64,000 nucleotides of DNA from Pythium myriotylum (lineage: Eukaryota; Oomycota; Peronosporomycetes; Pythiales; Pythiaceae): the NCBI GenBank assembly GCA_023091665.1, contig JALJCQ010000009.1:1302001-1366000 (forward strand), given 5' to 3'. Numbering within the stretch: the first letter of the stretch is position 1; each line of letters starts with the position of its first letter. Below the pieces are notes generated by a model. That model did not search any database. It was not told the origin of the DNA and worked only from the letters and a program-made list of their open reading frames with translations. Positions 8,590 through 40,654 of the stretch are shown piece after piece. Position numbers and translations under genes: made by a program.

Positions 8590-8625
8590 TGTCTCTGTCT
8601 CTGTCTCTGTCTCTGTCTCTGTCTC
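8590..8625. repeat. TGTCTC microsatellite, 6 copies
   Basis: The shortest allele of the hexamer I measured in the array. Confidence 0.88.
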
Positions 8626-17584: not shown

Positions 17585-17656
17585 TGCGCCATCGGGGAAT
17601 CGAACCCCGACCTCATCCTTGGAAGGGACGAATCCTAACCATTAGACCAATGGCGC
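17585..17656 (-). tRNA. tRNA-Gly(UCC), copy 11
   Basis: Same sequence as 311-382; the adjoining spacer is the 6-bp-shorter form. Confidence 0.95.
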
Positions 17657-18060: not shown

Positions 18061-18132
18061 TGCGCCGCCGGGGAATCGAACCCCGACCTCGTCCGTGGGA
18101 GGGACGAATCCTAACCATTAGACCAACGGCGC
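18061..18132 (-). tRNA. tRNA-Gly(CCC), copy 11
   Basis: Same sequence as 793-864. Confidence 0.95.
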
Positions 18133-19087
18133 ATCGCGAAACTCGCTTGTAGACGTTTTTTCACCACCCCCAAAAACCCTACCCCGCGCCCCGCAAATTT
18201 TCTGGACAGGCTACTGAATCTTTTGAATAGAGTCTATGAGTCTATTAAATTTTAACAGACACGACCTGCACCACACCCTCTGTCCGATGCTAACACACAC
18301 TGCATGGTACACTCTCTTTGGCCCATTCTGTCCTTCCCCATCTGCTTACCAATGGCCTGCTTTCGTGGTGGTCATCTACTCACCACTGCGTTGAGCATCT
18401 GCACGCTCTACATCGACTTCCGTGCCTCCAAGGAATCACTATGCTGACCTCGATAGACTCGCTTCGAAACGAAGCACTCTCTTTGGCAGTGCATCACCCC
18501 TCCCCAACGCCACGCTCTTCTCCACCACTCCACCACCCCGACATTTCAAACGGAACACTACGACAAAACAACCAAATCATATCTCCAACCCGCCCCGGGT
18601 CCAGTGCATCACGAATACGAATATTGACAACACGAACACGACATGGTCCCAACACACACCCCGAACACGACGGATGGCAGTGACACCGCGCGCTCGTTTG
18701 TTTGGAACAGCTCGCCTCCCAGGATGATCAAACCACAGCCGGTGAGCAACGATAGAGTGCTTATCCATGGCTCGACTCGGTTTTGCCTGGCAAGTGGTCT
18801 GTCAACTCAGGCCAGACGACTCCTTTGTGCCTGCGGACAGTGTTCAACCCATGCACAGTGAATGGATCGAACCGATGGGCGTTGGTCCGTCGTGTCGCAA
18901 CCCCCGAATTGCGCTCTCGCCACCAGCCGGTCGAAGGTCACCGGCGCACTACGCTCGGCCAGCGCCAGCGCCAGCGCCAGCGCCATCTGTCTCTGTCTCT
19001 GTCTCTGTCTCTGTCTCTGTCTCTGTCTCTCTCCGCATTCGTGGGGCAGTGCGACTACGAGAGCAGGGGAAGTAATAGCGGATTGGG

Positions 19088-19187
19088 GCGGGGGTGGCGG
19101 CGGTGGAGCGGGGGTGGCGGCGGTGGAGCGGGGGTGGCGGCGGTGGAGCGGGGGTGGCGGCGGTGGAGCGGGGGTGGCGGCGGTGGA
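19088..19187. repeat. 20-bp minisatellite, 5 copies
   Basis: Expanded allele of the G-rich 20-mer. Confidence 0.9.
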
Positions 19188-19371
19188 GCGGGGATGACGC
19201 GGGGCCAGGAGCAGGAGCGAGCGCCGGAGAAGGGCGCGAATCGGGTAGAAGAAGAGTGAGAAGAAGAGTTAGAGTTGTGGATGGAAATGGTATCATAGGG
19301 CTCTGCAGAGCGTCAGGTAGGGCTGGGTCGTGGCAAAACGTTGTGAAACGTGCTGTAAAGGGGCAAAACTG

Positions 19372-19443
19372 TGCGCCATCGGGGAATCGAACCCCGACCT
19401 CATCCTTGGAAGGGACGAATCCTAACCATTAGACCAATGGCGC
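19372..19443 (-). tRNA. tRNA-Gly(UCC), copy 12
   Basis: Same sequence as 311-382. Confidence 0.95.
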
Positions 19444-19853
19444 GATGCGGACCACGCTCAAACAGCCACACACACAAACACAACACAACTACCAAACACA
19501 CAACGGCCAAACGCACACGACAAACAAAACGAATCGCTACGGACACGACCCTCGAACGCCTGACGACACCCCCATCAGAACACAGACACACAGCGGCACA
19601 CATACACCACCGCTCTTCTACAATCACACTCACACCCAAACAGCCCATCAAACACAAACACAAACACAAACACACTCACGCTCACACTTACACTTACACT
19701 TATACTCACAGTTCAACATCACCCGTCCCACTCCCAGCGACCAATGCGAGCGATCCTTTGTCCCACGCTCCATTTGGGACGAGAGGCCTCTCGATCAAGG
19801 CGTCGCCATCGTGGTATCGTGCGTGGTGTTGGGTTTCGCAAAACAAAGAGGAT

Positions 19854-19925
19854 TGCGCCGCCGGGGAATCGAACCCCGACCTCGTCCGTGGGAGGGACGA
19901 ATCCTAACCATTAGACCAACGGCGC
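19854..19925 (-). tRNA. tRNA-Gly(CCC), copy 12
   Basis: Same sequence as 793-864. Confidence 0.95.
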
Positions 19926-20880
19926 ATCGCGAAACTCGCTTGTAGACGTTTTTTCACCACCCCCAAAAACCCTACCCCGCGCCCCGCAAATTTTCTGGAC
20001 AGGCTACTGAATCTTTTGAATAGAGTCTATGAGTCTATTAAATTTTAACAGACACGACCTGCACCACACCCTCTGTCCGATGCTAACACACACTGCATGG
20101 TACACTCTCTTTGGCCCATTCTGTCCTTCCCCATCTGCTTACCAATGGCCTGCTTTCGTGGTGGTCATCTACTCACCACTGCGTTGAGCATCTGCACGCT
20201 CTACATCGACTTCCGTGCCTCCAAGGAATCACTATGCTGACCTCGATAGACTCGCTTCGAAACGAAGCACTCTCTTTGGCAGTGCATCACCCCTCCCCAA
20301 CGCCACGCTCTTCTCCACCACTCCACCACCCCGACATTTCAAACGGAACACTACGACAAAACAACCAAATCATATCTCCAACCCGCCCCGGGTCCAGTGC
20401 ATCACGAATACGAATATTGACAACACGAACACGACATGGTCCCAACACACACCCCGAACACGACGGATGGCAGTGACACCGCGCGCTCGTTTGTTTGGAA
20501 CAGCTCGCCTCCCAGGATGATCAAACCACAGCCGGTGAGCAACGATAGAGTGCTTATCCATGGCTCGACTCGGTTTTGCCTGGCAAGTGGTCTGTCAACT
20601 CAGGCCAGACGACTCCTTTGTGCCTGCGGACAGTGTTCAACCCATGCACAGTGAATGGATCGAACCGATGGGCGTTGGTCCGTCGTGTCGCAACCCCCGA
20701 ATTGCGCTCTCGCCACCAGCCGGTCGAAGGTCACCGGCGCACTACGCTCGGCCAGCGCCAGCGCCAGCGCCAGCGCCATCTGTCTCTGTCTCTGTCTCTG
20801 TCTCTGTCTCTGTCTCTGTCTCTCTCCGCATTCGTGGGGCAGTGCGACTACGAGAGCAGGGGAAGTAATAGCGGATTGGG

Positions 20881-21000
20881 GCGGGGGTGGCGGCGGTGGA
20901 GCGGGGGTGGCGGCGGTGGAGCGGGGGTGGCGGCGGTGGAGCGGGGGTGGCGGCGGTGGAGCGGGGGTGGCGGCGGTGGAGCGGGGGTGGCGGCGGTGGA
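20881..21000. repeat. 20-bp minisatellite, 6 copies (longest allele)
   Basis: Six perfect head-to-tail copies. The unit containing it is 1813 bp, the longest standard unit. Confidence 0.92.
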
Positions 21001-21184
21001 GCGGGGATGACGCGGGGCCAGGAGCAGGAGCGAGCGCCGGAGAAGGGCGCGAATCGGGTAGAAGAAGAGTGAGAAGAAGAGTTAGAGTTGTGGATGGAAA
21101 TGGTATCATAGGGCTCTGCAGAGCGTCAGGTAGGGCTGGGTCGTGGCAAAACGTTGTGAAACGTGCTGTAAAGGGGCAAAACTG

Positions 21185-21256
21185 TGCGCCATCGGGGAAT
21201 CGAACCCCGACCTCATCCTTGGAAGGGACGAATCCTAACCATTAGACCAATGGCGC
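21185..21256 (-). tRNA. tRNA-Gly(UCC), copy 13
   Basis: Same sequence as 311-382. Confidence 0.95.
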
Positions 21257-21666
21257 GATGCGGACCACGCTCAAACAGCCACACACACAAACACAACACA
21301 ACTACCAAACACACAACGGCCAAACGCACACGACAAACAAAACGAATCGCTACGGACACGACCCTCGAACGCCTGACGACACCCCCATCAGAACACAGAC
21401 ACACAGCGGCACACATACACCACCGCTCTTCTACAATCACACTCACACCCAAACAGCCCATCAAACACAAACACAAACACAAACACACTCACGCTCACAC
21501 TTACACTTACACTTATACTCACAGTTCAACATCACCCGTCCCACTCCCAGCGACCAATGCGAGCGATCCTTTGTCCCACGCTCCATTTGGGACGAGAGGC
21601 CTCTCGATCAAGGCGTCGCCATCGTGGTATCGTGCGTGGTGTTGGGTTTCGCAAAACAAAGAGGAT

Positions 21667-21738
21667 TGCGCCGCCGGGGAATCGAACCCCGACCTCGTCC
21701 GTGGGAGGGACGAATCCTAACCATTAGACCAACGGCGC
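21667..21738 (-). tRNA. tRNA-Gly(CCC), copy 13
   Basis: Same sequence as 793-864. Confidence 0.95.
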
Positions 21739-22901
21739 ATCGCGAAACTCGCTTGTAGACGTTTTTTCACCACCCCCAAAAACCCTACCCCGCGCCCCGC
21801 AAATTTTCTGGACAGGCTACTGAATCTTTTGAATAGAGTCTATGAGTCTATTAAATTTTAACAGACACGACCTGCACCACACCCTCTGTCCGATGCTAAC
21901 ACACACTGCATGGTACACTCTCTTTGGCCCATTCTGTCCTTCCCCATCTGCTTACCAATGGCCTGCTTTCGTGGTGGTCATCTACTCACCACTGCGTTGA
22001 GCATCTGCACGCTCTACATCGACTTCCGTGCCTCCAAGGAATCACTATGCTGACCTCGATAGACTCGCTTCGAAACGAAGCACTCTCTTTGGCAGTGCAT
22101 CACCCCTCCCCAACGCCACGCTCTTCTCCACCACTCCACCACCCCGACATTTCAAACGGAACACTACGACAAAACAACCAAATCATATCTCCAACCCGCC
22201 CCGGGTCCAGTGCATCACGAATACGAATATTGACAACACGAACACGACATGGTCCCAACACACACCCCGAACACGACGGATGGCAGTGACACCGCGCTCG
22301 TTTGTTTGGAACAGCTCGCCTCCCAGGATGATCAAACCACAGCCGGTGAGCAACGATAGAGTGCTTATCCATGGCTCGACTCGGTTTTGCCTGGCAAGTG
22401 GTCTGTCAACTCAGGCCAGACGACTCCTTTGTGCCTGCGGACAGTGTTCAACCCATGCACAGTGAATGGATCGAACCGATGGGCGTTGGTCCGTCGTGTC
22501 GCAACCCCCGAATTGCGCTCTCGCCACCAGCCGGTCGAAGGTCACCGGCGCACTACGCTCGGCCAGCGCCAGCGCCAGCGCCATCTGTCTCTGTCTCTGT
22601 CTCTGTCTCTGTCTCTGTCTCTGTCTCTGTCTCTGTCTCTCTCCGCATTCGTGGGGCAGTGCGACTACGAGAGCAGGGGAAGTAATAGCGGATTGGGGCG
22701 GGGGTGGCGGCGGTGGAGCGGGGATGACGCGGGGCCAGGAGCAGGAGCGAGCGCCGGAGAAGGGCGCGAATCGGGTAGAAGAAGAGTGAGAAGAAGAGTT
22801 AGAGTTGTGGATGGAAATGGTATCATAGGGCTCTGCAGAGCGTCAGGTAGGGCTGGGTCGTGGCAAAACGTTGTGAAACGTGCTGTAAAGGGGCAAAACT
22901 G

Positions 22902-22973
22902 TGCGCCATCGGGGAATCGAACCCCGACCTCATCCTTGGAAGGGACGAATCCTAACCATTAGACCAATGGCGC
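22902..22973 (-). tRNA. tRNA-Gly(UCC), copy 14
   Basis: Same sequence as 311-382. Confidence 0.95.
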
Positions 22974-23383
22974 GATGCGGACCACGCTCAAACAGCCACA
23001 CACACAAACACAACACAACTACCAAACACACAACGGCCAAACGCACACGACAAACAAAACGAATCGCTACGGACACGACCCTCGAACGCCTGACGACACC
23101 CCCATCAGAACACAGACACACAGCGGCACACATACACCACCGCTCTTCTACAATCACACTCACACCCAAACAGCCCATCAAACACAAACACAAACACAAA
23201 CACACTCACGCTCACACTTACACTTACACTTATACTCACAGTTCAACATCACCCGTCCCACTCCCAGCGACCAATGCGAGCGATCCTTTGTCCCACGCTC
23301 CATTTGGGACGAGAGGCCTCTCGATCAAGGCGTCGCCATCGTGGTATCGTGCGTGGTGTTGGGTTTCGCAAAACAAAGAGGAT

Positions 23384-23455
23384 TGCGCCGCCGGGGAATC
23401 GAACCCCGACCTCGTCCGTGGGAGGGACGAATCCTAACCATTAGACCAACGGCGC
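23384..23455 (-). tRNA. tRNA-Gly(CCC), copy 14
   Basis: Same sequence as 793-864. Confidence 0.95.
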
Positions 23456-24612
23456 ATCGCGAAACTCGCTTGTAGACGTTTTTTCACCACCCCCAAAAAC
23501 CCTACCCCGCGCCCCGCAAATTTTCTGGACAGGCTACTGAATCTTTTGAATAGAGTCTATGAGTCTATTAAATTTTAACAGACACGACCTGCACCACACC
23601 CTCTGTCCGATGCTAACACACACTGCATGGTACACTCTCTTTGGCCCATTCTGTCCTTCCCCATCTGCTTACCAATGGCCTGCTTTCGTGGTGGTCATCT
23701 ACTCACCACTGCGTTGAGCATCTGCACGCTCTACATCGACTTCCGTGCCTCCAAGGAATCACTATGCTGACCTCGATAGACTCGCTTCGAAACGAAGCAC
23801 TCTCTTTGGCAGTGCATCACCCCTCCCCAACGCCACGCTCTTCTCCACCACTCCACCACCCCGACATTTCAAACGGAACACTACGACAAAACAACCAAAT
23901 CATATCTCCAACCCGCCCCGGGTCCAGTGCATCACGGATACGAATATTGACAACACGAACACGACATGGTCCCAACACACACCCCGAACACGACGGATGG
24001 CAGTGACACCGCGCTCGTTTGTTTGGAACAGCTCGCCTCCCAGGATGATCAAACCACAGCCGGTGAGCAACGATAGAGTGCTTATCCATGGCTCGACTCG
24101 GTTTTGCCTGGCAAGTGGTCTGTCAACTCAGGCCAGACGACTCCTTTGTGCCTGCGGACAGTGTTCAACCCATGCACAGTGAATGGATCGAACCGATGGG
24201 CGTTGGTCCGTCGTGTCGCAACCCCCGAATTGCGCTCTCGCCACCAGCCGGTCGAAGGTCACCGGCGCACTACGCTCGGCCAGCGCCAGCGCCAGCGCCA
24301 TCTGTCTCTGTCTCTGTCTCTGTCTCTGTCTCTGTCTCTGTCTCTGTCTCTCTCCGCATTCGTGGGGCAGTGCGACTACGAGAGCAGGGGAAGTAATAGC
24401 GGATTGGGGCGGGGGTGGCGGCGGTGGAGCGGGGATGACGCGGGGCCAGGAGCAGGAGCGAGCGCCGGAGAAGGGCGCGAATCGGGTAGAAGAAGAGTGA
24501 GAAGAAGAGTTAGAGTTGTGGATGGAAATGGTATCATAGGGCTCTGCAGAGCGTCAGGTAGGGCTGGGTCGTGGCAAAACGTTGTGAAACGTGCTGTAAA
24601 GGGGCAAAACTG

Positions 24613-24684
24613 TGCGCCATCGGGGAATCGAACCCCGACCTCATCCTTGGAAGGGACGAATCCTAACCATTAGACCAATGGCGC
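24613..24684 (-). tRNA. tRNA-Gly(UCC), copy 15
   Basis: Same sequence as 311-382; 6-bp-shorter spacer form follows. Confidence 0.95.
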
Positions 24685-25088
24685 GATGCGGACCACGCTC
24701 AAACAGCCACACACACAAACACAACACAACTACCAAACACACAACGGCCAAACGCACACGACAAACAAAACGAATCGCTACGGACACGACCCTCGAACGC
24801 CTGACGACACCCCCATCAGAACACAGACACACAGCGGCACACATACACCACCGCTCTTCTACAATCACACTCACACCCAAACAGCCCATCAAACACAAAC
24901 ACAAACACACTCACGCTCACACTTACACTTACACTTATACTCACAGTTCAACATCACCCGTCCCACTCCCAGCGACCAATGCGAGCGATCCTTTGTCCCA
25001 CGCTCCATTTGGGACGAGAGGCCTCTCGATCAAGGCGTCGCCATCGTGGTATCGTGCGTGGTGTTGGGTTTCGCAAAACAAAGAGGAT

Positions 25089-25160
25089 TGCGCCGCCGGG
25101 GAATCGAACCCCGACCTCGTCCGTGGGAGGGACGAATCCTAACCATTAGACCAACGGCGC
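25089..25160 (-). tRNA. tRNA-Gly(CCC), copy 15
   Basis: Same sequence as 793-864. Confidence 0.95.
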
Positions 25161-26305
25161 ATCGCGAAACTCGCTTGTAGACGTTTTTTCACCACCCCCA
25201 AAAACCCTACCCCGCGCCCCGCAAATTTTCTGGACAGGCTACTGAATCTTTTGAATAGAGTCTATGAGTCTATTAAATTTTAACAGACACGACCTGCACC
25301 ACACCCTCTGTCCGATGCTAACACACACTGCATGGTACACTCTCTTTGGCCCATTCTGTCCTTCCCCATCTGCTTACCAATGGCCTGCTTTCGTGGTGGT
25401 CATCTACTCACCACTGCGTTGAGCATCTGCACGCTCTACATCGACTTCCGTGCCTCCAAGGAATCACTATGCTGACCTCGATAGACTCGCTTCGAAACGA
25501 AACACTCTCTTTGGCAGTGCATCACCCCTCCCCAACGCCACGCTCTTCTCCACCACTCCACCACCCCGACATTTCAAACGGAACACTACGACAAAACAAC
25601 CAAATCATATCTCCAACCCGCCCCGGGTCCAGTGCATCACGAATACGAATATTGACAACACGAACACGACATGGTCCCAACACACACCCCGAACACGACG
25701 GATGGCAGTGACACCGCGCTCGTTTGTTTGGAACAGCTCGCCTCCCAGGATGATCAAACCACAGCCGGTGAGCAACGATAGAGTGCTTATCCATGGCTCG
25801 ACTCGGTTTTGCCTGGCAAGTGGTCTGTCAACTCAGGCCAGACGACTCCTTTGTGCCTGCGGACAGTGTTCAACCCATGCACAGTGAATGGATCGAACCG
25901 ATGGGCGCTGGTCCGTCGTGTCGCAACCCCCGAATTGCGCTCTCGCCACCAGCCGGTCGAAGGTCACCGGCGCACTACGCTCGGCCAGCGCCAGCGCCAT
26001 CTGTCTCTGTCTCTGTCTCTGTCTCTGTCTCTGTCTCTGTCTCTCTCCGCATTCGTGGGGCAGTGCGACTACGAGAGCAGGGGAAGTAATAGCGGATTGG
26101 GGCGGGGGTGGCGGCGGTGGAGCGGGGATGACGCGGGGCCAGGAGCAGGAGCGAGCGCCGGAGAAGGGCGCGAATCGGGTAGAAGAAGAGTGAGAAGAAG
26201 AGTTAGAGTTGTGGATGGAAATGGTATCATAGGGCTCTGCAGAGCGTCAGGTAGGGCTGGGTCGTGGCAAAACGTTGTGAAACGTGCTGTAAAGGGGCAA
26301 AACTG

Positions 26306-26377
26306 TGCGCCATCGGGGAATCGAACCCCGACCTCATCCTTGGAAGGGACGAATCCTAACCATTAGACCAATGGCGC
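26306..26377 (-). tRNA. tRNA-Gly(UCC), copy 16
   Basis: Same sequence as 311-382; 6-bp-shorter spacer form follows. Confidence 0.95.
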
Positions 26378-26781
26378 GATGCGGACCACGCTCAAACAGC
26401 CACACACACAAACACAACACAACTACCAAACACACAACGGCCAAACGCACACGACAAACAAAACGAATCGCTACGGACACGACCCTCGAACGCCTGACGA
26501 CACCCCCATCAGAACACAGACACACAGCGGCACACATACACCACCGCTCTTCTACAATCACACTCACACCCAAACAGCCCATCAAACACAAACACAAACA
26601 CACTCACGCTCACACTTACACTTACACTTATACTCACAGTTCAACATCACCCGTCCCACTCCCAGCGACCAATGCGAGCGATCCTTTGTCCCACGCTCCA
26701 TTTGGGACGAGAGGCCTCTCGATCAAGGCGTCGCCATCGTGGTATCGTGCGTGGTGTTGGGTTTCGCAAAACAAAGAGGAT

Positions 26782-26853
26782 TGCGCCGCCGGGGAATCGA
26801 ACCCCGACCTCGTCCGTGGGAGGGACGAATCCTAACCATTAGACCAACGGCGC
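26782..26853 (-). tRNA. tRNA-Gly(CCC), copy 16
   Basis: Same sequence as 793-864. Confidence 0.95.
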
Positions 26854-27700
26854 ATCGCGAAACTCGCTTGTAGACGTTTTTTCACCACCCCCAAAAACCC
26901 TACCCCGCGCCCCGCAAATTTTCTGGACAGGCTACTGAATCTTTTGAATAGAGTCTATGAGTCTATTAAATTTTAACAGACACGACCTGCACCACACCCT
27001 CTGTCCGATGCTAACACACACTGCATGGTACACTCTCTTTGGCCCATTCTGTCCTTCCCCATCTGCTTACCAATGGCCTGCTTTCGTGGTGGTCATCTAC
27101 TCACCACTGCGTTGAGCATCTGCACGCTCTACATCGACTTCCGTGCCTCCAAGGAATCACTATGCTGACCTCGATAGACTCGCTTCGAAACGAAGCACTC
27201 TCTTTGGCAGTGCATCACCCCTCCCCAACGCCACGCTCTTCTCCACCACTCCACCACCCCGACATTTCAAACGGAACACTACGACAAAACAACCAAATCA
27301 TATCTCCAACCCGCCCCGGGTCCAGTGCATCACGAATACGAATATTGACAACACGAACACGACATGGTCCCAACACACACCCCGAACACGACGGATGGCA
27401 GTGACACCGCGCTCGTTTGTTTGGAACAGCTCGCCTCCCAGGATGATCAAACCACAGCCGGTGAGCAACGATAGAGTGCTTATCCATGGCTCGACTCGGT
27501 TTTGCCTGGCAAGTGGTCTGTCAACTCAGGCCAGACGACTCCTTTGTGCCTGCGGACAGTGTTCAACCCATGCACAGTGAATGGATCGAACCGATGGGCG
27601 TTGGTCCGTCGTGTCGCAACCCCCGAATTGCGCTCTCGCCACCAGCCGGTCGAAGGTCACCGGCGCACTACGCTCGGCCAGCGCCAGCGCCAGCGCCATC

Positions 27701-27766
27701 TGTCTCTGTCTCTGTCTCTGTCTCTGTCTCTGTCTCTGTCTCTGTCTCTGTCTCTGTCTCTGTCTC
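27701..27766. repeat. TGTCTC microsatellite, 11 copies
   Basis: Longest hexamer allele seen; a second 11-copy allele lies at 36264-36329. Confidence 0.9.
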
Positions 27767-28028
27767 TCTCCGCATTCGTGGGGCAGTGCGACTACGAGAG
27801 CAGGGGAAGTAATAGCGGATTGGGGCGGGGGTGGCGGCGGTGGAGCGGGGATGACGCGGGGCCAGGAGCAGGAGCGAGCGCCGGAGAAGGGCGCGAATCG
27901 GGTAGAAGAAGAGTGAGAAGAAGAGTTAGAGTTGTGGATGGAAATGGTATCATAGGGCTCTGCAGAGCGTCAGGTAGGGCTGGGTCGTGGCAAAACGTTG
28001 TGAAACGTGCTGTAAAGGGGCAAAACTG

Positions 28029-28100
28029 TGCGCCATCGGGGAATCGAACCCCGACCTCATCCTTGGAAGGGACGAATCCTAACCATTAGACCAATGGCGC
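28029..28100 (-). tRNA. tRNA-Gly(UCC), copy 17
   Basis: Same sequence as 311-382. Confidence 0.95.
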
Positions 28101-28510
28101 GATGCGGACCACGCTCAAACAGCCACACACACAAACACAACACAACTACCAAACACACAACGGCCAAACGCACACGACAAACAAAACGAATCGCTACGGA
28201 CACGACCCTCGAACGCCTGACGACACCCCCATCAGAACACAGACACACAGCGGCACACATACACCACCGCTCTTCTACAATCACACTCACACCCAAACAG
28301 CCCATCAAACACAAACACAAACACAAACACACTCACGCTCACACTTACACTTACACTTATACTCACAGTTCAACATCACCCGTCCCACTCCCAGCGACCA
28401 ATGCGAGCGATCCTTTGTCCCACGCTCCATTTGGGACGAGAGGCCTCTCGATCAAGGCGTCGCCATCGTGGTATCGTGCGTGGTGTTGGGTTTCGCAAAA
28501 CAAAGAGGAT

Positions 28511-28582
28511 TGCGCCGCCGGGGAATCGAACCCCGACCTCGTCCGTGGGAGGGACGAATCCTAACCATTAGACCAACGGCGC
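28511..28582 (-). tRNA. tRNA-Gly(CCC), copy 17
   Basis: Same sequence as 793-864. Confidence 0.95.
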
Positions 28583-29739
28583 ATCGCGAAACTCGCTTGT
28601 AGACGTTTTTTCACCACCCCCAAAAACCCTACCCCGCGCCCCGCAAATTTTCTGGACAGGCTACTGAATCTTTTGAATAGAGTCTATGAGTCTATTAAAT
28701 TTTAACAGACACGACCTGCACCACACCCTCTGTCCGATGCTAACACACACTGCATGGTACACTCTCTTTGGCCCATTCTGTCCTTCCCCATCTGCTTACC
28801 AATGGCCTGCTTTCGTGGTGGTCATCTACTCACCACTGCGTTGAGCATCTGCACGCTCAACATCGACTTCCGTGCCTCCAAGGAATCACTATGCTGACCT
28901 CGATAGACTCGCTTCGAAACGAAACACTCTCTTTGGCAGTGCATCACCCCTCCCCAACGCCACGCTCTTCTCCACCACTCCACCACCCCGACATTTCAAA
29001 CGGAACACTACGACAAAACAACCAAATCATATCTCCAACCCGCCCCGGGTCCAGTGCATCACGAATACGAATATTGACAACACGAACACGACATGGTCCC
29101 AACACACACCCCGAACACGACGGATGGCAGTGACACCGCGCTCGTTTGTTTGGAACAGCTCGCCTCCCAGGATGATCAAACCACAGCCGGTGAGCAACGA
29201 TAGAGTGCTTATCCATGGCTCGACTCGGTTTTGCCTGGCAAGTGGTCTGTCAACTCAGGCCAGACGACTCCTTTGTGCCTGCGGACAGTGTTCAACCCAT
29301 GCACAGTGAATGGATCGAACCGATGGGCGTTGGTCCGTCGTGTCGCAACCCCCGAATTGCGCTCTCGCCACCAGCCGGTCGAAGGTCACCGGCGCACTAC
29401 GCTCGGCCAGCGCCAGCGCCAGCGCCAGCGCCATCTGTCTCTGTCTCTGTCTCTGTCTCTGTCTCTGTCTCTGTCTCTCTCCGCATTCGTGGGGCAGTGC
29501 GACTACGAGAGCAGGGGAAGTAATAGCGGATTGGGGCGGGGGTGGCGGCGGTGGAGCGGGGATGACGCGGGGCCAGGAGCAGGAGCGAGCGCCGGAGAAG
29601 GGCGCGAATCGGGTAGAAGAAGAGTGAGAAGAAGAGTTAGAGTTGTGGATGGAAATGGTATCATAGGGCTCTGCAGAGCGTCAGGTAGGGCTGGGTCGTG
29701 GCAAAACGTTGTGAAACGTGCTGTAAAGGGGCAAAACTG

Positions 29740-29811
29740 TGCGCCATCGGGGAATCGAACCCCGACCTCATCCTTGGAAGGGACGAATCCTAACCATTAG
29801 ACCAATGGCGC
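29740..29811 (-). tRNA. tRNA-Gly(UCC), copy 18
   Basis: Same sequence as 311-382. Confidence 0.95.
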
Positions 29812-30221
29812 GATGCGGACCACGCTCAAACAGCCACACACACAAACACAACACAACTACCAAACACACAACGGCCAAACGCACACGACAAACAAAACGA
29901 ATCGCTACGGACACGACCCTCGAACGCCTGACGACACCCCCATCAGAACACAGACACACAGCGGCACACATACACCACCGCTCTTCTACAATCACACTCA
30001 CACCCAAACAGCCCATCAAACACAAACACAAACACAAACACACTCACGCTCACACTTACACTTACACTTATACTCACAGTTCAACATCACCCGTCCCACT
30101 CCCAGCGACCAATGCGAGCGATCCTTTGTCCCACGCTCCATTTGGGACGAGAGGCCTCTCGATCAAGGCGTCGCCATCGTGGTATCGTGCGTGGTGTTGG
30201 GTTTCGCAAAACAAAGAGGAT

Positions 30222-30293
30222 TGCGCCGCCGGGGAATCGAACCCCGACCTCGTCCGTGGGAGGGACGAATCCTAACCATTAGACCAACGGCGC
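30222..30293 (-). tRNA. tRNA-Gly(CCC), copy 18
   Basis: Same sequence as 793-864. Confidence 0.95.
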
Positions 30294-31444
30294 ATCGCGA
30301 AACTCGCTTGTAGACGTTTTTTCACCACCCCCAAAAACCCTACCCCGCGCCCCGCAAATTTTCTGGACAGGCTACTGAATCTTTTGAATAGAGTCTATGA
30401 GTCTATTAAATTTTAACAGACACGACCTGCACCACACCCTCTGTCCGATGCTAACACACACTGCATGGTACACTCTCTTTGGCCCATTCTGTCCTTCCCC
30501 ATCTGCTTACCAATGGCCTGCTTTCGTGGTGGTCATCTACTCACCACTGCGTTGAGCATCTGCACGCTCAACATCGACTTCCGTGCCTCCAAGGAATCAC
30601 TATGCTGACCTCGATAGACTCGCTTCGAAACGAAACACTCTCTTTGGCAGTGCATCACCCCTCCCCAACGCCACGCTCTTCTCCACCACTCCACCACCCC
30701 GACATTTCAAACGGAACACTACGACAAAACAACCAAATCATATCTCCAACCCGCCCCGGGTCCAGTGCATCACGAATACGAATATTGACAACACGAACAC
30801 GACATGGTCCCAACACACACCCCGAACACGACGGATGGCAGTGACACCGCGCGCTCGTTTGTTTGGAACAGCTCGCCTCCCAGGATGATCACACCACAGC
30901 CGGTGAGCAACGATAGAGTGCTTATCCATGGCTCGACTCGGTTTTGCCTGGCAAGTGGTCTGTCAACTCAGGCCAGACGACTCCTTTGTGCCTGCGGACA
31001 GTGTTCAACCCATGCACAGTGAATGGATCGAACCGATGGGCGTCGTGTCGCAACCCCCGAATTGCGCTCTCGCCACCAGCCGGTCGAAGGTCACCGGCGC
31101 ACTACGCTCGGCCAGCGCCAGCGCCAGCGCCAGCGCCATCTGTCTCTGTCTCTGTCTCTGTCTCTGTCTCTGTCTCTGTCTCTCTCCGCATTCGTGGGGC
31201 AGTGCGACTACGAGAGCAGGGGAAGTAATAGCGGATTGGGGCGGGGGTGGCGGCGGTGGAGCGGGGATGACGCGGGGCCAGGAGCAGGAGCGAGCGCCGG
31301 AGAAGGGCGCGAATCGGGTAGAAGAAGAGTGAGAAGAAGAGTTAGAGTTGTGGATGGAAATGGTATCATAGGGCTCTGCAGAGCGTCAGGTAGGGCTGGG
31401 TCGTGGCAAAACGTTGTGAAACGTGCTGTAAAGGGGCAAAACTG

Positions 31445-31516
31445 TGCGCCGCCGGGGAATCGAACCCCGACCTCGTCCGTGGGAGGGACGAATCCTAACC
31501 ATTAGACCAACGGCGC
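31445..31516 (-). tRNA. tRNA-Gly(CCC) in the position of a UCC gene (deletion unit)
   Basis: The tRNA itself is a complete CCC copy. Its left flank, including the TTTT terminator, is the one that normally adjoins the UCC gene, and its right flank is the normal CCC 5' flank. The UCC gene and the ~0.4-kb inter-tRNA spacer are absent, so the unit is 1231 bp. The junction lies within or beside the six bases shared at the tRNA 3' ends. This is the expected product of homologous recombination between the two tRNA genes. Confidence 0.95.
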
Positions 31517-32675
31517 ATCGCGAAACTCGCTTGTAGACGTTTTTTCACCACCCCCGAAAACCCTACCCCGCGCCACGCAAATTTTCTGGACAGGCTACTG
31601 AATCTTTTGAATAGAGTCTATGAGTCTATTAAATTTTAACAGACACGACCTGCACCACACCCTCTGTCCGATGCTAACACACACTGCATGGTACACTCTC
31701 TTTGGCCCATTCTGTCCTTCCCCATCTGCTTACCAATGGCCTGCTTTCGTGGTGGTCATCTACTCACCACTGCGTTGAGCATCTGCACGCTCTACATCGA
31801 CTTCCGTGCCTCCAAGGAATCACTATGCTGACCTCGATAGACTCGCTTCGAAACGAAACACTCTCTTTGGCAGTGCATCACCCCTCCCCAACGCCACGCT
31901 CTTCTCCACCACTCCACCACCCCGACATTTCAAACGGAACACTACGACAAAACAACCAAATCATATCTCCAACCCGCCCCGGGTCCAGTGCATCACGAAT
32001 ACGAATATTGACAACACGAACACGACATGGTCCCAACACACACCCCGAACACGACGGATGGCAGTGACACCGCGCGCTCGTTTGTTTGGAACAGCTCGCC
32101 TCCCAGGATGATCAAACCACAGCCGGTGAGCAACGATAGAGTGCTTATCCATGGCTCGACTCGGTTTTGCCTGGCAAGTGGTCTGTCAACTCAGGCCAGA
32201 CGACTCCTTTGTGCCTGCGGACAGTGTTCAACCCATGCACAGTGAATGGATCGAACCGATGGGCGTTGGTCCGTCGTGTCGCAACCCCCGAATTGCGCTC
32301 TCGCCACCAGCCGGTCGAAGGTCACCGGCGCACTACGCTCGGCCAGCGCCAGCGCCAGCGCCAGCGCCATCTGTCTCTGTCTCTGTCTCTGTCTCTGTCT
32401 CTGTCTCTGTCTCTCTCCGCATTCGTGGGGCAGTGCGACTACGAGAGCAGGGGAAGTAATAGCGGATTGGGGCGGGGGTGGCGGCGGTGGAGCGGGGATG
32501 ACGCGGGGCCAGGAGCAGGAGCGAGCGCCGGAGAAGGGCGCGAATCGGGTAGAAGAAGAGTGAGAAGAAGAGTTAGAGTTGTGGATGGAAATGGTATCAT
32601 AGGGCTCTGCAGAGCGTCAGGTAGGGCTGGGTCGTGGCAAAACGTTGTGAAACGTGCTGTAAAGGGGCAAAACTG

Positions 32676-32747
32676 TGCGCCATCGGGGAATCGAACCCCG
32701 ACCTCATCCTTGGAAGGGACGAATCCTAACCATTAGACCAATGGCGC
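32676..32747 (-). tRNA. tRNA-Gly(UCC), copy 19
   Basis: Same sequence as 311-382. Confidence 0.95.
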
Positions 32748-33157
32748 GATGCGGACCACGCTCAAACAGCCACACACACAAACACAACACAACTACCAAA
32801 CACACAACGGCCAAACGCACACGACAAACAAAACGAATCGCTACGGACACGACCCTCGAACGCCTGACGACACCCCCATCAGAACACAGACACACAGCGG
32901 CACACATACACCACCGCTCTTCTACAATCACACTCACACCCAAACAGCCCATCAAACACAAACACAAACACAAACACACTCACGCTCACACTTACACTTA
33001 CACTTATACTCACAGTTCAACATCACCCGTCCCACTCCCAGCGACCAATGCGAGCGATCCTTTGTCCCACGCTCCATTTGGGACGAGAGGCCTCTCGATC
33101 AAGGCGTCGCCATCGTGGTATCGTGCGTGGTGTTGGGTTTCGCAAAACAAAGAGGAT

Positions 33158-33229
33158 TGCGCCGCCGGGGAATCGAACCCCGACCTCGTCCGTGGGAGGG
33201 ACGAATCCTAACCATTAGACCAACGGCGC
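33158..33229 (-). tRNA. tRNA-Gly(CCC), copy 20
   Basis: Same sequence as 793-864. Confidence 0.95.
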
Positions 33230-34386
33230 ATCGCGAAACTCGCTTGTAGACGTTTTTTCACCACCCCCAAAAACCCTACCCCGCGCCCCGCAAATTTTCT
33301 GGACAGGCTACTGAATCTTTTGAATAGAGTCTATGAGTCTATTAAATTTTAACAGACACGACCTGCACCACACCCTCTGTCCGATGCTAACACACACTGC
33401 ATGGTACACTCTCTTTGGCCCATTCTGTCCTTCCCCATCTGCTTACCAATGGCCTGCTTTCGTGGTGGTCATCTACTCACCACTGCGTTGAGCATCTGCA
33501 CGCTCTACATCGACTTCCGTGCCTCCAAGGAATCACTATGCTGACCTCGATAGACTCGCTTCGAAACGAAACACTCTCTTTGGCAGTGCATCACCCCTCC
33601 CCAACGCCACGCTCTTCTCCACCACTCCACCACCCCGACATTTCAAACGGAACACTACGACAAAACAACCAAATCATATCTCCAACCCGCCCCGGGTCCA
33701 GTGCATCACGAATACGAATATTGACAACACGAACACGACATGGTCCCAACACACACCCCGAACACGACGGATGGCAGTGACACCGCGCTCGTTTGTTTGG
33801 AACAGCTCGCCTCCCAGGATGATCAAACCACAGCCGGTGAGCAACGATAGAGTGCTTATCCATGGCTCGACTCGGTTTTGCCTGGCAAGTGGTCTGTCAA
33901 CTCAGGCCAGACGACTCCTTTGTGCCTGCGGACAGTGTTCAACCCATGCACAGTGAATGGATCGAACCGATGGGCGCTGGTCCGTCGTGTCGCAACCCCC
34001 GAATTGCGCTCTCGCCACCAGCCGGTCGAAGGTCACCGGCGCACTACGCTCGGCCAGCGCCAGCGCCAGCGCCAGCGCCATCTGTCTCTGTCTCTGTCTC
34101 TGTCTCTGTCTCTGTCTCTGTCTCTCTCCGCATTCGTGGGGCAGTGCGACTACGAGAGCAGGGGAAGTAATAGCGGATTGGGGCGGGGGTGGCGGCGGTG
34201 GAGCGGGGATGACGCGGGGCCAGGAGCAGGAGCGAGCGCCGGAGAAGGGCGCGAATCGGGTAGAAGAAGAGTGAGAAGAAGAGTTAGAGTTGTGGATGGA
34301 AATGGTATCATAGGGCTCTGCAGAGCGTCAGGTAGGGCTGGGTCGTGGCAAAACGTTGTGAAACGTGCTGTAAAGGGGCAAAACTG

Positions 34387-34458
34387 TGCGCCATCGGGGA
34401 ATCGAACCCCGACCTCATCCTTGGAAGGGACGAATCCTAACCATTAGACCAATGGCGC
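34387..34458 (-). tRNA. tRNA-Gly(UCC), copy 20
   Basis: Same sequence as 311-382. Confidence 0.95.
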
Positions 34459-34862
34459 GATGCGGACCACGCTCAAACAGCCACACACACAAACACAACA
34501 CAACTACCAAACACACAACGGCCAAACGCACACGACAAACAAAACGAATCGCTACGGACACGACCCTCGAACGCCTGACGACACCCCCATCAGAACACAG
34601 ACACACAGCGGCACACATACACCACCGCTCTTCTACAATCACACTCACACCCAAACAGCCCATCAAACACAAACACAAACACACCCACGCTCACACTTAC
34701 ACTTACACTTATACTCACAGTTCAACATCACCCGTCCCACTCCCAGCGACCAATGCGAGCGATCCTTTGTCCCACGCTCCATTTGGGACGAGAGGCCTCT
34801 CGATCAAGGCGTCGCCATCGTGGTATCGTGCGTGGTGTTGGGTTTCGCAAAACAAAGAGGAT

Positions 34863-34934
34863 TGCGCCGCCGGGGAATCGAACCCCGACCTCGTCCGTGG
34901 GAGGGACGAATCCTAACCATTAGACCAATGGCGC
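34863..34934 (-). tRNA. Chimeric tRNA-Gly(CCC), chimera 1
   Basis: The 3' acceptor strand, T-arm and CCC anticodon arm are those of the CCC gene, while the 5' acceptor strand (GCGCCAU) and 5' flank are those of the UCC gene. The acceptor stem therefore has a mismatch A6-C67 beside the U7-G66 wobble, leaving five Watson-Crick pairs. The A and B boxes and the terminator are intact, so it should be transcribed. Whether it folds and is charged stably is open. Confidence 0.93.
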
Positions 34935-35344
34935 GATGCGGACCACGCTCAAACAGCCACACACACAAACACAACACAACTACCAAACACACAACGGCCA
35001 AACGCACACGACAAACAAAACGAATCGCTACGGACACGACCCTCGAACGCCTGACGACACCCCCATCAGAACACAGACACACAGCGGCACACATACACCA
35101 CCGCTCTTCTACAATCACACTCACACCCAAACAGCCCATCAAACACAAACACAAACACAAACACACTCACGCTCACACTTACACTTACACTTATACTCAC
35201 AGTTCAACATCACCCGTCCCACTCCCAGCGACCAATGCGAGCGATCCTTTGTCCCACGCTCCATTTGGGACGAGAGGCCTCTCGATCAAGGCGTCGCCAT
35301 CGTGGTATCGTGCGTGGTGTTGGGTTTCGCAAAACAAAGAGGAT

Positions 35345-35416
35345 TGCGCCGCCGGGGAATCGAACCCCGACCTCGTCCGTGGGAGGGACGAATCCTAACC
35401 ATTAGACCAACGGCGC
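35345..35416 (-). tRNA. tRNA-Gly(CCC), copy 21
   Basis: Same sequence as 793-864. Confidence 0.95.
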
Positions 35417-36263
35417 ATCGCGAAACTCGCTTGTAGACGTTTTTTCACCACCCCCAAAAACCCTACCCCGCGCCACGCAAATTTTCTGGACAGGCTACTG
35501 AATCTTTTGAATAGAGTCTATGAGTCTATTAAATTTTAACAGACACGACCTGCACCACACCCTCTGTCCGATGCTAACACACACTGCATGGTACACTCTC
35601 TTTGGCCCATTCTGTCCTTCCCCATCTGCTTACCAATGGCCTGCTTTCGTGGTGGTCATCTACTCACCACTGCGTTGAGCATCTGCACGCTCTACATCGA
35701 CTTCCGTGCCTCCAAGGAATCACTATGCTGACCTCGATAGACTCGCTTCGAAACGAAACACTCTCTTTGGCAGTGCATCACCCCTCCCCAACGCCACGCT
35801 CTTCTCCACCACTCCACCACCCCGACATTTCAAACGGAACACTACGACAAAACAACCAAATCATATCTCCAACCCGCCCCGGGTCCAGTGCATCACGAAT
35901 ACGAATATTGACAACACGAACACGACATGGTCCCAACACACACCCCGAACACGACGGATGGCAGTGACACCGCGCTCGTTTGTTTGGAACAGCTCGCCTC
36001 CCAGGATGATCAAACCACAGCCGGTGAGCAACGATAGAGTGCTTATCCATGGCTCGACTCGGTTTTGCCTGGCAAGTGGTCTGTCAACTCAGGCCAGACG
36101 ACTCCTTTGTGCCTGCGGACAGTGTTCAACCCATGCACAGTGAATGGATCGAACCGATGGGCGTTGGTCCGTCGTGTCGCAACCCCCGAATTGCGCTCTC
36201 GCCACCAGCCGGTCGAAGGTCACCGGCGCACTACGCTCGGCCAGCGCCAGCGCCAGCGCCATC

Positions 36264-36329
36264 TGTCTCTGTCTCTGTCTCTGTCTCTGTCTCTGTCTCT
36301 GTCTCTGTCTCTGTCTCTGTCTCTGTCTC
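36264..36329. repeat. TGTCTC microsatellite, 11 copies
   Basis: Same length as the allele at 27701-27766, 8.5 kb away in the array. Confidence 0.9.
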
Positions 36330-36591
36330 TCTCCGCATTCGTGGGGCAGTGCGACTACGAGAGCAGGGGAAGTAATAGCGGATTGGGGCGGGGGTGGCGG
36401 CGGTGGAGCGGGGATGACGCGGGGCCAGGAGCAGGAGCGAGCGCCGGAGAAGGGCGCGAATCGGGTAGAAGAAGAGTGAGAAGAAGAGTTAGAGTTGTGG
36501 ATGGAAATGGTATCATAGGGCTCTGCAGAGCGTCAGGTAGGGCTGGGTCGTGGCAAAACGTTGTGAAACGTGCTGTAAAGGGGCAAAACTG

Positions 36592-36663
36592 TGCGCCATC
36601 GGGGAATCGAACCCCGACCTCATCCTTGGAAGGGACGAATCCTAACCATTAGACCAATGGCGC
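36592..36663 (-). tRNA. tRNA-Gly(UCC), copy 21
   Basis: Same sequence as 311-382. Confidence 0.95.
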
Positions 36664-37067
36664 GATGCGGACCACGCTCAAACAGCCACACACACAAACA
36701 CAACACAACTACCAAACACACAACGGCCAAACGCACACGACAAACAAAACGAATCGCTACGGACACGACCCTCGAACGCCTGACGACACCCCCATCAGAA
36801 CACAGACACACAGCGGCACACATACACCACCGCTCTTCTACAATCACACTCACACCCAAACAGCCCATCAAACACAAACACAAACACACCCACGCTCACA
36901 CTTACACTTACACTTATACTCACAGTTCAACATCACCCGTCCCACTCCCAGCGACCAATGCGAGCGATCCTTTGTCCCACGCTCCATTTGGGACGAGAGG
37001 CCTCTCGATCAAGGCGTCGCCATCGTGGTATCGTGCGTGGTGTTGGGTTTCGCAAAACAAAGAGGAT

Positions 37068-37139
37068 TGCGCCGCCGGGGAATCGAACCCCGACCTCGTC
37101 CGTGGGAGGGACGAATCCTAACCATTAGACCAATGGCGC
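37068..37139 (-). tRNA. Chimeric tRNA-Gly(CCC), chimera 2
   Basis: Same junction and same A6-C67 mismatch as 34863-34934. Confidence 0.92.
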
Positions 37140-37543
37140 GATGCGGACCACGCTCAAACAGCCACACACACAAACACAACACAACTACCAAACACACAAC
37201 GGCCAAACGCACACGACAAACAAAACGAATCGCTACGGACACGACCCTCGAACGCCTGACGACACCCCCATCAGAACACAGACACACAGCGGCACACATA
37301 CACCACCGCTCTTCTACAATCACACTCACACCCAAACAGCCCATCAAACACAAACACAAACACACCCACGCTCACACTTACACTTACACTTATACTCACA
37401 GTTCAACATCACCCGTCCCACTCCCAGCGACCAATGCGAGCGATCCTTTGTCCCACGCTCCATTTGGGACGAGAGGCCTCTCGATCAAGGCGTCGCCATC
37501 GTGGTATCGTGCGTGGTGTTGGGTTTCGCAAAACAAAGAGGAT

Positions 37544-37615
37544 TGCGCCGCCGGGGAATCGAACCCCGACCTCGTCCGTGGGAGGGACGAATCCTAACCA
37601 TTAGACCAATGGCGC
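37544..37615 (-). tRNA. Chimeric tRNA-Gly(CCC), chimera 3
   Basis: Same as 34863-34934. Confidence 0.92.
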
Positions 37616-38019
37616 GATGCGGACCACGCTCAAACAGCCACACACACAAACACAACACAACTACCAAACACACAACGGCCAAACGCACACGACAAACAAA
37701 ACGAATCGCTACGGACACGACCCTCGAACGCCTGACGACACCCCCATCAGAACACAGACACACAGCGGCACACATACACCACCGCTCTTCTACAATCACA
37801 CTCACACCCAAACAGCCCATCAAACACAAACACAAACACACCCACGCTCACACTTACACTTACACTTATACTCACAGTTCAACATCACCCGTCCCACTCC
37901 CAGCGACCAATGCGAGCGATCCTTTGTCCCACGCTCCATTTGGGACGAGAGGCCTCTCGATCAAGGCGTCGCCATCGTGGTATCGTGCGTGGTGTTGGGT
38001 TTCGCAAAACAAAGAGGAT

Positions 38020-38091
38020 TGCGCCGCCGGGGAATCGAACCCCGACCTCGTCCGTGGGAGGGACGAATCCTAACCATTAGACCAATGGCGC
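38020..38091 (-). tRNA. Chimeric tRNA-Gly(CCC), chimera 4
   Basis: Same as 34863-34934. Confidence 0.92.
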
Positions 38092-38501
38092 GATGCGGAC
38101 CACGCTCAAACAGCCACACACACAAACACAACACAACTACCAAACACACAACGGCCAAACGCACACGACAAACAAAACGAATCGCTACGGACACGACCCT
38201 CGAACGCCTGACGACACCCCCATCAGAACACAGACACACAGCGGCACACATACACCACCGCTCTTCTACAATCACACTCACACCCAAACAGCCCATCAAA
38301 CACAAACACAAACACAAACACACTCACGCTCACACTTACACTTACACTTATACTCACAGTTCAACATCACCCGTCCCACTCCCAGCGACCAATGCGAGCG
38401 ATCCTTTGTCCCACGCTCCATTTGGGACGAGAGGCCTCTCGATCAAGGCGTCGCCATCGTGGTATCGTGCGTGGTGTTGGGTTTCGCAAAACAAAGAGGA
38501 T

Positions 38502-38573
38502 TGCGCCGCCGGGGAATCGAACCCCGACCTCGTCCGTGGGAGGGACGAATCCTAACCATTAGACCAACGGCGC
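38502..38573 (-). tRNA. tRNA-Gly(CCC), copy 22
   Basis: Same sequence as 793-864. Confidence 0.95.
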
Positions 38574-39742
38574 ATCGCGAAACTCGCTTGTAGACGTTTT
38601 TTCACCACCCCCAAAAACCCTACCCCGCGCCACGCAAATTTTCTGGACAGGCTACTGAATCTTTTGAATAGAGTCTATGAGTCTATTAAATTTTAACAGA
38701 CACGACCTGCACCACACCCTCTGTCCGATGCTAACACACACTGCATGGTACACTCTCTTTGGCCCATTCTGTCCTTCCCCATCTGCTTACCAATGGCCTG
38801 CTTTCGTGGTGGTCATCTACTCACCACTGCGTTGAGCATCTGCACGCTCTACATCGACTTCCGTGCCTCCAAGGAATCACTATGCTGACCTCGATAGACT
38901 CGCTTCGAAACGAAACACTCTCTTTGGCAGTGCATCACCCCTCCCCAACGCCACGCTCTTCTCCACCACTCCACCACCCCGACATTTCAAACGGAACACT
39001 ACGACAAAACAACCAAATCATATCTCCAACCCGCCCCGGGTCCAGTGCATCACGAATACGAATATTGACAACACGAACACGACATGGTCCCAACACACAC
39101 CCCGAACACGACGGATGGCAGTGACACCGCGCTCGTTTGTTTGGAACAGCTCGCCTCCCAGGATGATCAAACCACAGCCGGTGAGCAACGATAGAGTGCT
39201 TATCCATGGCTCGACTCGGTTTTGCCTGGCAAGTGGTCTGTCAACTCAGGCCAGACGACTCCTTTGTGCCTGCGGACAGTGTTCAACCCATGCACAGTGA
39301 ATGGATCGAACCGATGGGCGTTGGTCCGTCGTGTCGCAACCCCCGAATTGCGCTCTCGCCACCAGCCGGTCGAAGGTCACCGGCGCACTACGCTCGGCCA
39401 GCGCCAGCGCCAGCGCCAGCGCCATCTGTCTCTGTCTCTGTCTCTGTCTCTGTCTCTGTCTCTGTCTCTGTCTCTGTCTCTCTCCGCATTCGTGGGGCAG
39501 TGCGACTACGAGAGCAGGGGAAGTAATAGCGGATTGGGGCGGGGGTGGCGGCGGTGGAGCGGGGATGACGCGGGGCCAGGAGCAGGAGCGAGCGCCGGAG
39601 AAGGGCGCGAATCGGGTAGAAGAAGAGTGAGAAGAAGAGTTAGAGTTGTGGATGGAAATGGTATCATAGGGCTCTGCAGAGCGTCAGGTAGGGCTGGGTC
39701 GTGGCAAAACGTTGTGAAACGTGCTGTAAAGGGGCAAAACTG

Positions 39743-39814
39743 TGCGCCATCGGGGAATCGAACCCCGACCTCATCCTTGGAAGGGACGAATCCTAACCAT
39801 TAGACCAATGGCGC
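39743..39814 (-). tRNA. tRNA-Gly(UCC), copy 22 (last)
   Basis: Same sequence as 311-382. The following spacer is the shorter form with the T-to-C change, as in the amplified block. Confidence 0.95.
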
Positions 39815-40218
39815 GATGCGGACCACGCTCAAACAGCCACACACACAAACACAACACAACTACCAAACACACAACGGCCAAACGCACACGACAAACAAAA
39901 CGAATCGCTACGGACACGACCCTCGAACGCCTGACGACACCCCCATCAGAACACAGACACACAGCGGCACACATACACCACCGCTCTTCTACAATCACAC
40001 TCACACCCAAACAGCCCATCAAACACAAACACAAACACACCCACGCTCACACTTACACTTACACTTATACTCACAGTTCAACATCACCCGTCCCACTCCC
40101 AGCGACCAATGCGAGCGATCCTTTGTCCCACGCTCCATTTGGGACGAGAGGCCTCTCGATCAAGGCGTCGCCATCGTGGTATCGTGCGTGGTGTTGGGTT
40201 TCGCAAAACAAAGAGGAT

Positions 40219-40290
40219 TGCGCCGCCGGGGAATCGAACCCCGACCTCGTCCGTGGGAGGGACGAATCCTAACCATTAGACCAACGGCGC
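40219..40290 (-). tRNA. tRNA-Gly(CCC), copy 23 (last)
   Basis: Same sequence as 793-864; the last tRNA gene before the array ends. Confidence 0.95.
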
Positions 40291-40654
40291 ATCGCGAAAC
40301 TCGCTTGTAGACGTTTTTTCACCACCCCCAAAAACCCTACCCCGCGCCCCGCAAATTTTCTGGACAGGCTACTGAATCTTTTGAATAGAGTCTATGAGTC
40401 TATTAAATTTTAACAGACACGACCTGCACCACACCCTCTGTCCGATGCTAACACACACTGCATGGTACACTCTCTTTGGCCCATTCTGTCCTTCCCCATC
40501 TGCTTACCAATGGCCTGCTTTCGTGGTGGTCATCTACTCACCACTGCGTTGAGCATCTGCACGCTCTACATCGACTTCCGTGCCTCCAAGGAATCACTAT
40601 GCTGACCTCGATAGACTCGCTTCGAAACGAAGCACTCTCTTTGGCAGTGCATCA

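What the first reader, a model, noticed from the sequence alone, without database searches (positions are those of the whole stretch)
34863..38091. Chimeric tRNA-Gly(CCC) genes with an A6-C67 acceptor mismatch
Four tRNA genes (34863, 37068, 37544, 38020) join a CCC body to the UCC 5' end. The 5' strand GCGCCAU no longer matches the 3' strand GCGGCGC at pair 6-67. New tRNA alleles have thus arisen by exchange between isoacceptor genes and were then multiplied. They may be poorly processed, or they may be tolerated variants.
Basis: partly seen in the sequence, partly recalled or inferred. Interest (0 to 1): 0.78.

Follow-up and report, generated by a model that had tools for sequence, protein, structure and literature searches.

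The report
Hybrid glycine tRNA genes from array crossover
In a long tandem array of glycine tRNA genes of an oomycete (water mould), two sister tRNA types have recombined inside the gene, leaving four identical hybrid genes with one mispaired base in the acceptor stem: a clear example of how repeated tRNA genes reshuffle, but of a kind of process already known.

Summary
Four identical genes at 34863, 37068, 37544 and 38020 (minus strand) carry the leader and at least nt 1-6 of tRNA-Gly(UCC), then the body and trailer of tRNA-Gly(CCC), giving A6-C67 beside a U7-G66 wobble. They lie in one array of 59 genes (27 UCC, 28 CCC, 4 hybrids), 49 of them in this window. No other copy was found in the 58.7 Mb genome, which mitochondrial cox1 places in the oomycetes.

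Both flanks are exchanged along with the sequence, so this is a crossover, not a point mutation or simple gene conversion. All 4 hybrids are followed by a spacer variant otherwise seen only in the array-edge unit (1 of 27), so they probably share one origin and were multiplied. A CCC gene at 31444 is a product of the opposite flank type, from a different event.

Function cannot be told from sequence. Pol III box regions, terminator, anticodon and glycine identity positions match the parents, and normal copies abound; I expect tolerated, partly functional variants. Tandem isoacceptor tRNA arrays, and variants grouped near one array edge, are already reported in Phytophthora.

The parts
34863..34934 (-). 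hybrid tRNA-Gly(CCC), UCC 5' end, A6-C67; single copy between a CCC and a UCC gene
37068..37139 (-). hybrid tRNA-Gly(CCC), third of three tandem copies in transcription order
37544..37615 (-). hybrid tRNA-Gly(CCC), second of three tandem copies, 476-bp period
38020..38091 (-). hybrid tRNA-Gly(CCC), first of three tandem copies
31444..31516 (-). opposite-type recombinant: CCC leader and body with the UCC trailer, between two long spacers; breakpoint in the last 6 nt of the gene, so the tRNA body is a normal CCC
40219..40290 (-). array-edge CCC gene; the only CCC gene followed by the 405a spacer, so the likeliest 3' parent type of the hybrids
39815..40219 (-). short spacer variant 405a of the edge unit, identical to those downstream of all four hybrids
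36664..37068 (-). 405a short spacer downstream of the third tandem hybrid, leading to the UCC gene at 36591
310..40291 (-). window part of the tRNA-Gly UCC/CCC array (49 of 59 genes; 10 more lie left of the window, two of them beyond an 18.7-kb expanded spacer)

Best explanation
The four genes descend from an unequal crossover, most likely one, between a tRNA-Gly(UCC) and a tRNA-Gly(CCC) gene, inside a shared 27-bp stretch between gene positions 6 and 34, in a tandem dimeric tRNA array. The two strands of the acceptor stem lie at opposite ends of the gene, so most internal crossovers in this direction join A6 to C67. The new 476-bp unit was then copied by further misaligned exchange. The hybrids are most likely transcribed and at least partly usable as tRNA-Gly(CCC), and are kept because 28 normal CCC genes make them dispensable. 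Shown: sequence, flank exchange, shared spacer variant, copy number. Inferred: single origin, order of events, expression, tolerance.
For: Hybrids have the UCC 5' flank, the CCC 3' flank and a switch of body type between positions 6 and 34. No detectable conversion without flank exchange among 59 genes: every body is an exact UCC, CCC or hybrid copy in the flanks expected for it. 4 of 4 hybrids are followed by spacer variant 405a, against 1 of 27 CCC genes followed by a short spacer. An opposite-type recombinant at 31444 shows that UCC/CCC misalignment happened in both senses. Of 66 positions identical in the two genes (nt 1 to the discriminator), 55 lie where a UCC-to-CCC crossover yields A6-C67. 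For usability: Rfam tRNA score 50.4 bits against 56.0 for CCC and a cut-off of 29; G1-C72, C2-G71, G3-C70, C35, C36 and A73 are kept, which include the yeast glycine identity positions named in passages of PMC9976931; a T4 run lies at +11 as in normal CCC genes; the minimum free energy is -32.9 kcal/mol for both CCC and hybrid, in a fold where positions 6 and 7 are unpaired in both.
Against: In the standard cloverleaf the hybrid is 5.4 kcal/mol weaker than CCC (-25.6 against -31.0), so a processing or stability defect is quite possible. The long spacers after the two hybrid blocks differ at 7 columns and 1 indel, although 5 of the 7 lie within six columns and may be one event; so the second block is not a plain copy of the first, and either more exchanges followed or there were two origins. 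The spacer variant 405a rests on one substitution plus a 6-bp deletion that another variant shares. No expression data. The assembly was not checked against reads.
Confidence: 0.8

Rival explanations
1. The hybrids are expressed poorly or not at all as mature tRNA: A6-C67 next to U7-G66 weakens the acceptor/T-stem stack, so the precursor is badly processed or the tRNA is removed by quality control. They are young pseudogenes drifting in a redundant array. (This rivals only the functional half of the best explanation.)
For: Cloverleaf energy 5.4 kcal/mol weaker than CCC; Rfam score 5.6 bits lower. Yeast rapid tRNA decay mainly monitors the acceptor and T stems (title of Whipple 2011, seen only in the reference list of PMC4284800).
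Against: No further mutation in 4 of 4 copies, though they are probably too young for this to count. An alternative fold costs nothing. Only one pair is mispaired.
Confidence: 0.35
2. Point mutation: a CCC gene mutated G6 to A and was then multiplied.
For: Only one base of the gene body differs from CCC (98.6% identity over 71 bases).
Against: The 5' flank of all four is that of UCC genes, not of CCC genes. A crossover upstream of position 6 plus a mutation that happens to give the UCC letter would be needed.
Confidence: 0.04
3. Assembly or read artefact: collapse or chimeric reads in a 59-gene tandem array created the junctions.
For: Oomycete tRNA gene counts are known to be assembly-sensitive (section 9 of PMC9584435 read in full).
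Against: Two separate hybrid blocks with different long-spacer haplotypes, three tandem copies, one consistent downstream spacer variant, and a separate opposite-type recombinant are more than one bad join would give.
Confidence: 0.1
4. Simple intrachromatid deletion (slippage or single-strand annealing) between a UCC gene and the next CCC gene, rather than exchange between chromatids.
For: It also removes the long spacer and leaves short spacer - hybrid - short spacer.
Against: The hybrid blocks begin with spacer 411 and continue with 405a (2 of 2 blocks); a deletion in the present array order would put the edge-unit 405a before the hybrid. This assumes that 405a was confined to the edge unit at the time.
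Confidence: 0.2

Closest known systems
Dimeric and trimeric tandem tRNA arrays of Phytophthora infestans (PMC9584435; section 9 read in full, other passages seen)
   Same: Oomycete; large tandem arrays, some of two isoacceptors of one amino acid; growth by unequal crossing-over proposed in its Discussion (passage); [quoted passage not shown]
   Different: Section 9 does not describe hybrids between isoacceptors or broken acceptor pairs. It describes dimeric and trimeric arrays as much more diverse; here the gene bodies are nearly uniform. Its figures and supplements were not seen.
Concerted evolution of tRNA genes by intergenic conversion in S. pombe (Amstutz 1985; seen only as cited in passages of PMC4981973)
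   Same: Sequence exchange between related tRNA genes.
   Different: There unlinked genes and conversion; here a tandem array with exchanged flanks, hence crossover.
Isoacceptor tRNA remolding (PMC4981973, passages seen including parts of the abstract)
   Same: New tRNA alleles within one amino-acid class; mostly young and thought to be often non-functional.
   Different: Remolding is anticodon mutation; here the anticodon arm is inherited intact and the 5' end is exchanged.
tRNA acceptor-stem editing (PMC4284800, start of abstract and passages seen)
   Same: Deals with tRNAs whose genes encode acceptor-stem mismatches.
   Different: The title and passages concern terminal positions, especially in mitochondria; there is no evidence of editing here.

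Membership tests
tRNA-Gly gene | Fits the tRNA covariance model with a Gly anticodon | tested here: met
   ARAGORN Gly(ccc) for 4 of 4; Rfam RF00005 50.4 bits against a cut-off of 29 for 4 of 4
tRNA-Gly gene | Fully paired 7-bp acceptor stem | tested here: not met
   A6-C67 in 4 of 4
tRNA-Gly gene | Glycine identity positions kept | tested here: met
   G1-C72, C2-G71, G3-C70, C35, C36, A73 against the determinants in passages of PMC9976931; the set is not known for oomycete enzymes
tRNA-Gly gene | Transcribed, processed, charged | not testable with these tools
   no RNA data
Unequal-crossover hybrid in a tandem array | Switch of parental type inside the gene with exchange of both flanks | tested here: met
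Unequal-crossover hybrid in a tandem array | Repeat spacing altered as crossover predicts | tested here: met
   short-short spacers around the 4 hybrids, long-long around 31444
Unequal-crossover hybrid in a tandem array | Reciprocal product of the same event present | tested here: not met
   31444 has opposite flanks but its breakpoint is in the last 6 nt, a different interval, so it is a separate event; the reciprocal need not survive in one genome

The most novel reading that the evidence does not exclude
The hybrid is a working, distinct tRNA-Gly(CCC) allele whose A6-C67 is either used as is or repaired in the RNA (A-to-I at 6 or C-to-U at 67), so that isoacceptor arrays act as generators of new tRNA alleles that are tested in redundancy and amplified when harmless or useful.
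Probability: 0.07. Interest if true: 0.7.

Novelty: new member of a known kind. Interest (0 to 1): 0.35.

Why it matters
It shows within a single array that crossing-over between sister tRNA genes makes hybrid tRNAs, and why such hybrids tend to carry a broken acceptor pair: the two acceptor strands sit at opposite ends of the gene. That gives a clean natural test of how much acceptor-stem damage a redundant tRNA family tolerates.

Tried and rejected
Point mutation of a CCC gene: rejected because the UCC 5' flank is joined. Gene conversion without crossover: rejected because both flanks are exchanged, and no converted gene with unswapped flanks is detectable among 59. Treating 31444 as the exact reciprocal of the hybrid: rejected because the breakpoint interval differs. 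Plain duplication of the whole hybrid block with its long spacer: not supported, as the following long spacers differ at 7 columns, 5 of them clustered, and 1 indel.

Searches that led nowhere: the hybrid pattern in viral contigs (0 matches) and a UCC/CCC degenerate pattern in bacterial and archaeal genomes (0 matches), both expected. The weak Tymovirus tRNA-like hits (22-23.7 bits, cut-off 40) are taken as chance. Literature searches: (1 paper listed; 12 of 13 listed; 20 of 68; 20 of 72; 7; 0; 20 of 50; 4; 10 of 17), 45 (6). Among the titles and abstract starts listed I saw no report of an isoacceptor hybrid in an oomycete array; this is limited to open-licence papers in this library and to the papers listed. 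A 'chimeric tRNA gene' in a passage of PMC2791219 is a bacterial junction of a tra cluster, not this. Other isolates and metagenomes could not be searched. Arrays of other isoacceptors in this genome were not searched for hybrids beyond listing the tRNAs in two 10-kb stretches.

Full report
ARAGORN finds 49 tRNA-Gly genes on the minus strand between 310 and 40291. They fall into 22 UCC genes, 22 CCC genes, 4 identical hybrids (34863, 37068, 37544, 38020) and one CCC gene with an unusual 3' flank (31444). Fetching the genome to the left adds 5 UCC and 5 CCC genes, so the array holds 59 genes: 27 UCC, 28 CCC, 4 hybrids. A pattern search of the whole 58.7 Mb genome with the last 21 nt of these genes found the same 59 places and no others; the DNA search reported 40 matches, and both tools mark counts of repeats as lower bounds. 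More distant Gly paralogues are not excluded.

UCC and CCC genes differ at six positions, 6, 34, 38, 42, 65 and 66 along the gene. All 27 UCC and all 28 CCC bodies are exact copies of their type. The hybrid carries the UCC letter at 6 and CCC letters at the other five. In standard numbering the acceptor stem therefore has A6-C67 and U7-G66, where UCC has A-U and U-A and CCC has G-C and U-G.

The array alternates CCC, a short spacer (405 or 411 bp), UCC, a long spacer (1146-1260 bp in 26 of 27 cases, 18.7 kb in one), CCC and so on. Around each hybrid both neighbours are short spacers; around 31444 both are long spacers. This is what crossover between a UCC and a CCC gene gives in its two senses. 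A mutation, or a conversion tract without crossover, would leave the flanks in place, and none of 59 genes shows that. The breakpoint of the hybrids lies in a 27-bp identical run after position 6; that of 31444 lies in the last 6 nt, so 31444 is a separate event and its body is a normal CCC.

The 31 short spacers fall into four sequences with 18, 7, 5 and 1 copies. The five-copy variant, 405a, has one substitution beside a 6-bp repeat-unit deletion that the seven-copy variant shares. It follows 4 of 4 hybrids and 1 of the 27 CCC genes followed by a short spacer, the array-edge gene at 40219 (Fisher p = 1.6e-4; an association only, since copies are not independent). This favours one origin with an edge-type CCC gene as 3' parent. 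Both hybrid blocks begin with a 411 spacer and continue with 405a, the reverse of what a local deletion would give in the present array order, so exchange between misaligned chromatids or homologues is preferred; this is inference. Against a simple history, the long spacers after the two blocks differ at 7 columns and 1 indel, though 5 of the 7 lie within six columns and may be one event. The array edge is near: a truncated long spacer (372 bp, 99.2% identical) lies upstream of 40219.

Why a mismatch? The acceptor strands are encoded at the two ends of the gene. Of the 66 positions from nt 1 to the discriminator that are identical in the two genes, 55 lie between the differences at 6 and 66, and a UCC-to-CCC crossover in any of them joins A6 to C67. 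The opposite sense would give G6-U67, a wobble (hypothetical hybrid). The mispair is thus the expected by-product, not a sign of selection for it.

Function is open. In favour of use: Rfam score 50.4 bits (CCC 56.0, UCC 63.9, cut-off 29); the D-arm and T-arm regions in which the pol III A and B boxes lie (recalled, not tested) hold none of the six differences; a T4 run lies at +11 as in CCC; the glycine positions listed for yeast in passages of PMC9976931 are intact. Against: the cloverleaf is 5.4 kcal/mol weaker than CCC and 1.8 weaker than UCC (-25.6, -31.0, -27.4). ViennaRNA puts CCC and the hybrid at the same minimum energy, -32.9 kcal/mol, in a fold with a 5-bp acceptor stem and a longer T stem, with ensemble energies -34.47 and -33.84; its best fold for the UCC gene is not a cloverleaf at all, so such folding of unmodified tRNA is a weak guide. 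GGG made up 30 of 196 Gly codons in the four ORFs of this window that I counted, so a CCC tRNA is in some demand, and 28 normal genes serve it.

The host is an oomycete: its mitochondrial cox1 is 90-92% identical to named Phytophthora and Peronosporaceae proteins and up to 99% identical to unnamed ones (120 of 7999 matches listed, and only the 7999 best candidates were scored). The genus was not determined. P. infestans is reported to have 7,519 chromosomal tRNA genes, with tandem arrays including isoacceptor dimers, and variants grouped often near one edge of monomeric arrays (section 9 of PMC9584435). The Thr(CGT)-Ser(GCT)-Trp(CCA) array on contig C11 involves the same three tRNAs as a trimeric array named there. 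What I add is a hybrid between isoacceptors with a broken acceptor pair, a spacer marker of its origin, and an opposite-type recombinant in the same array. It is a good example of a known process; interest 0.35. On checking, I lowered confidence in the best explanation from 0.82 to 0.80 because 5 of the 7 long-spacer differences may be one event and the spacer test is not on independent copies.

Noticed in passing
G000:C9:1276688-1295362, left of the window (L030, L031, start of L032): One long spacer of the array is expanded to 18.7 kb and holds several long ORFs (one of 1210 aa), perhaps mobile-element insertions; no family search was made on them.
   Followed up: partly
L038 (G000:C11:1613001-1623000): Trimeric array Thr(CGT)-Ser(GCT)-Trp(CCA), the same three tRNAs as a trimeric array reported in P. 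infestans.
   Followed up: partly
L037 (G000:C12:818001-828000): Seven tandem tRNA-Lys(TTT) genes with uneven spacing: 1138 bp in 3 of 6 intervals, 1795, 1948 and 1988 bp in the others.
   Followed up: no
G000:C2: Mitochondrial contig that repeats every 72,126 bases, with cox1 in both orientations within one period, which points to a large inverted repeat.
   Followed up: partly
window 60274-63650, minus strand: Two neighbouring, similar-looking ORFs (480 and 389 aa) that may be a tandem pair of membrane proteins; the first had no Pfam match at E 0.001, the second was not searched.
   Followed up: no
long spacers of the array, window 25161-39743: One T allele of the long spacer occurs in 7 of the 8 rightmost long spacers and in none of the other 18 of normal length, so repeat variants are regionally clustered.
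   Followed up: partly
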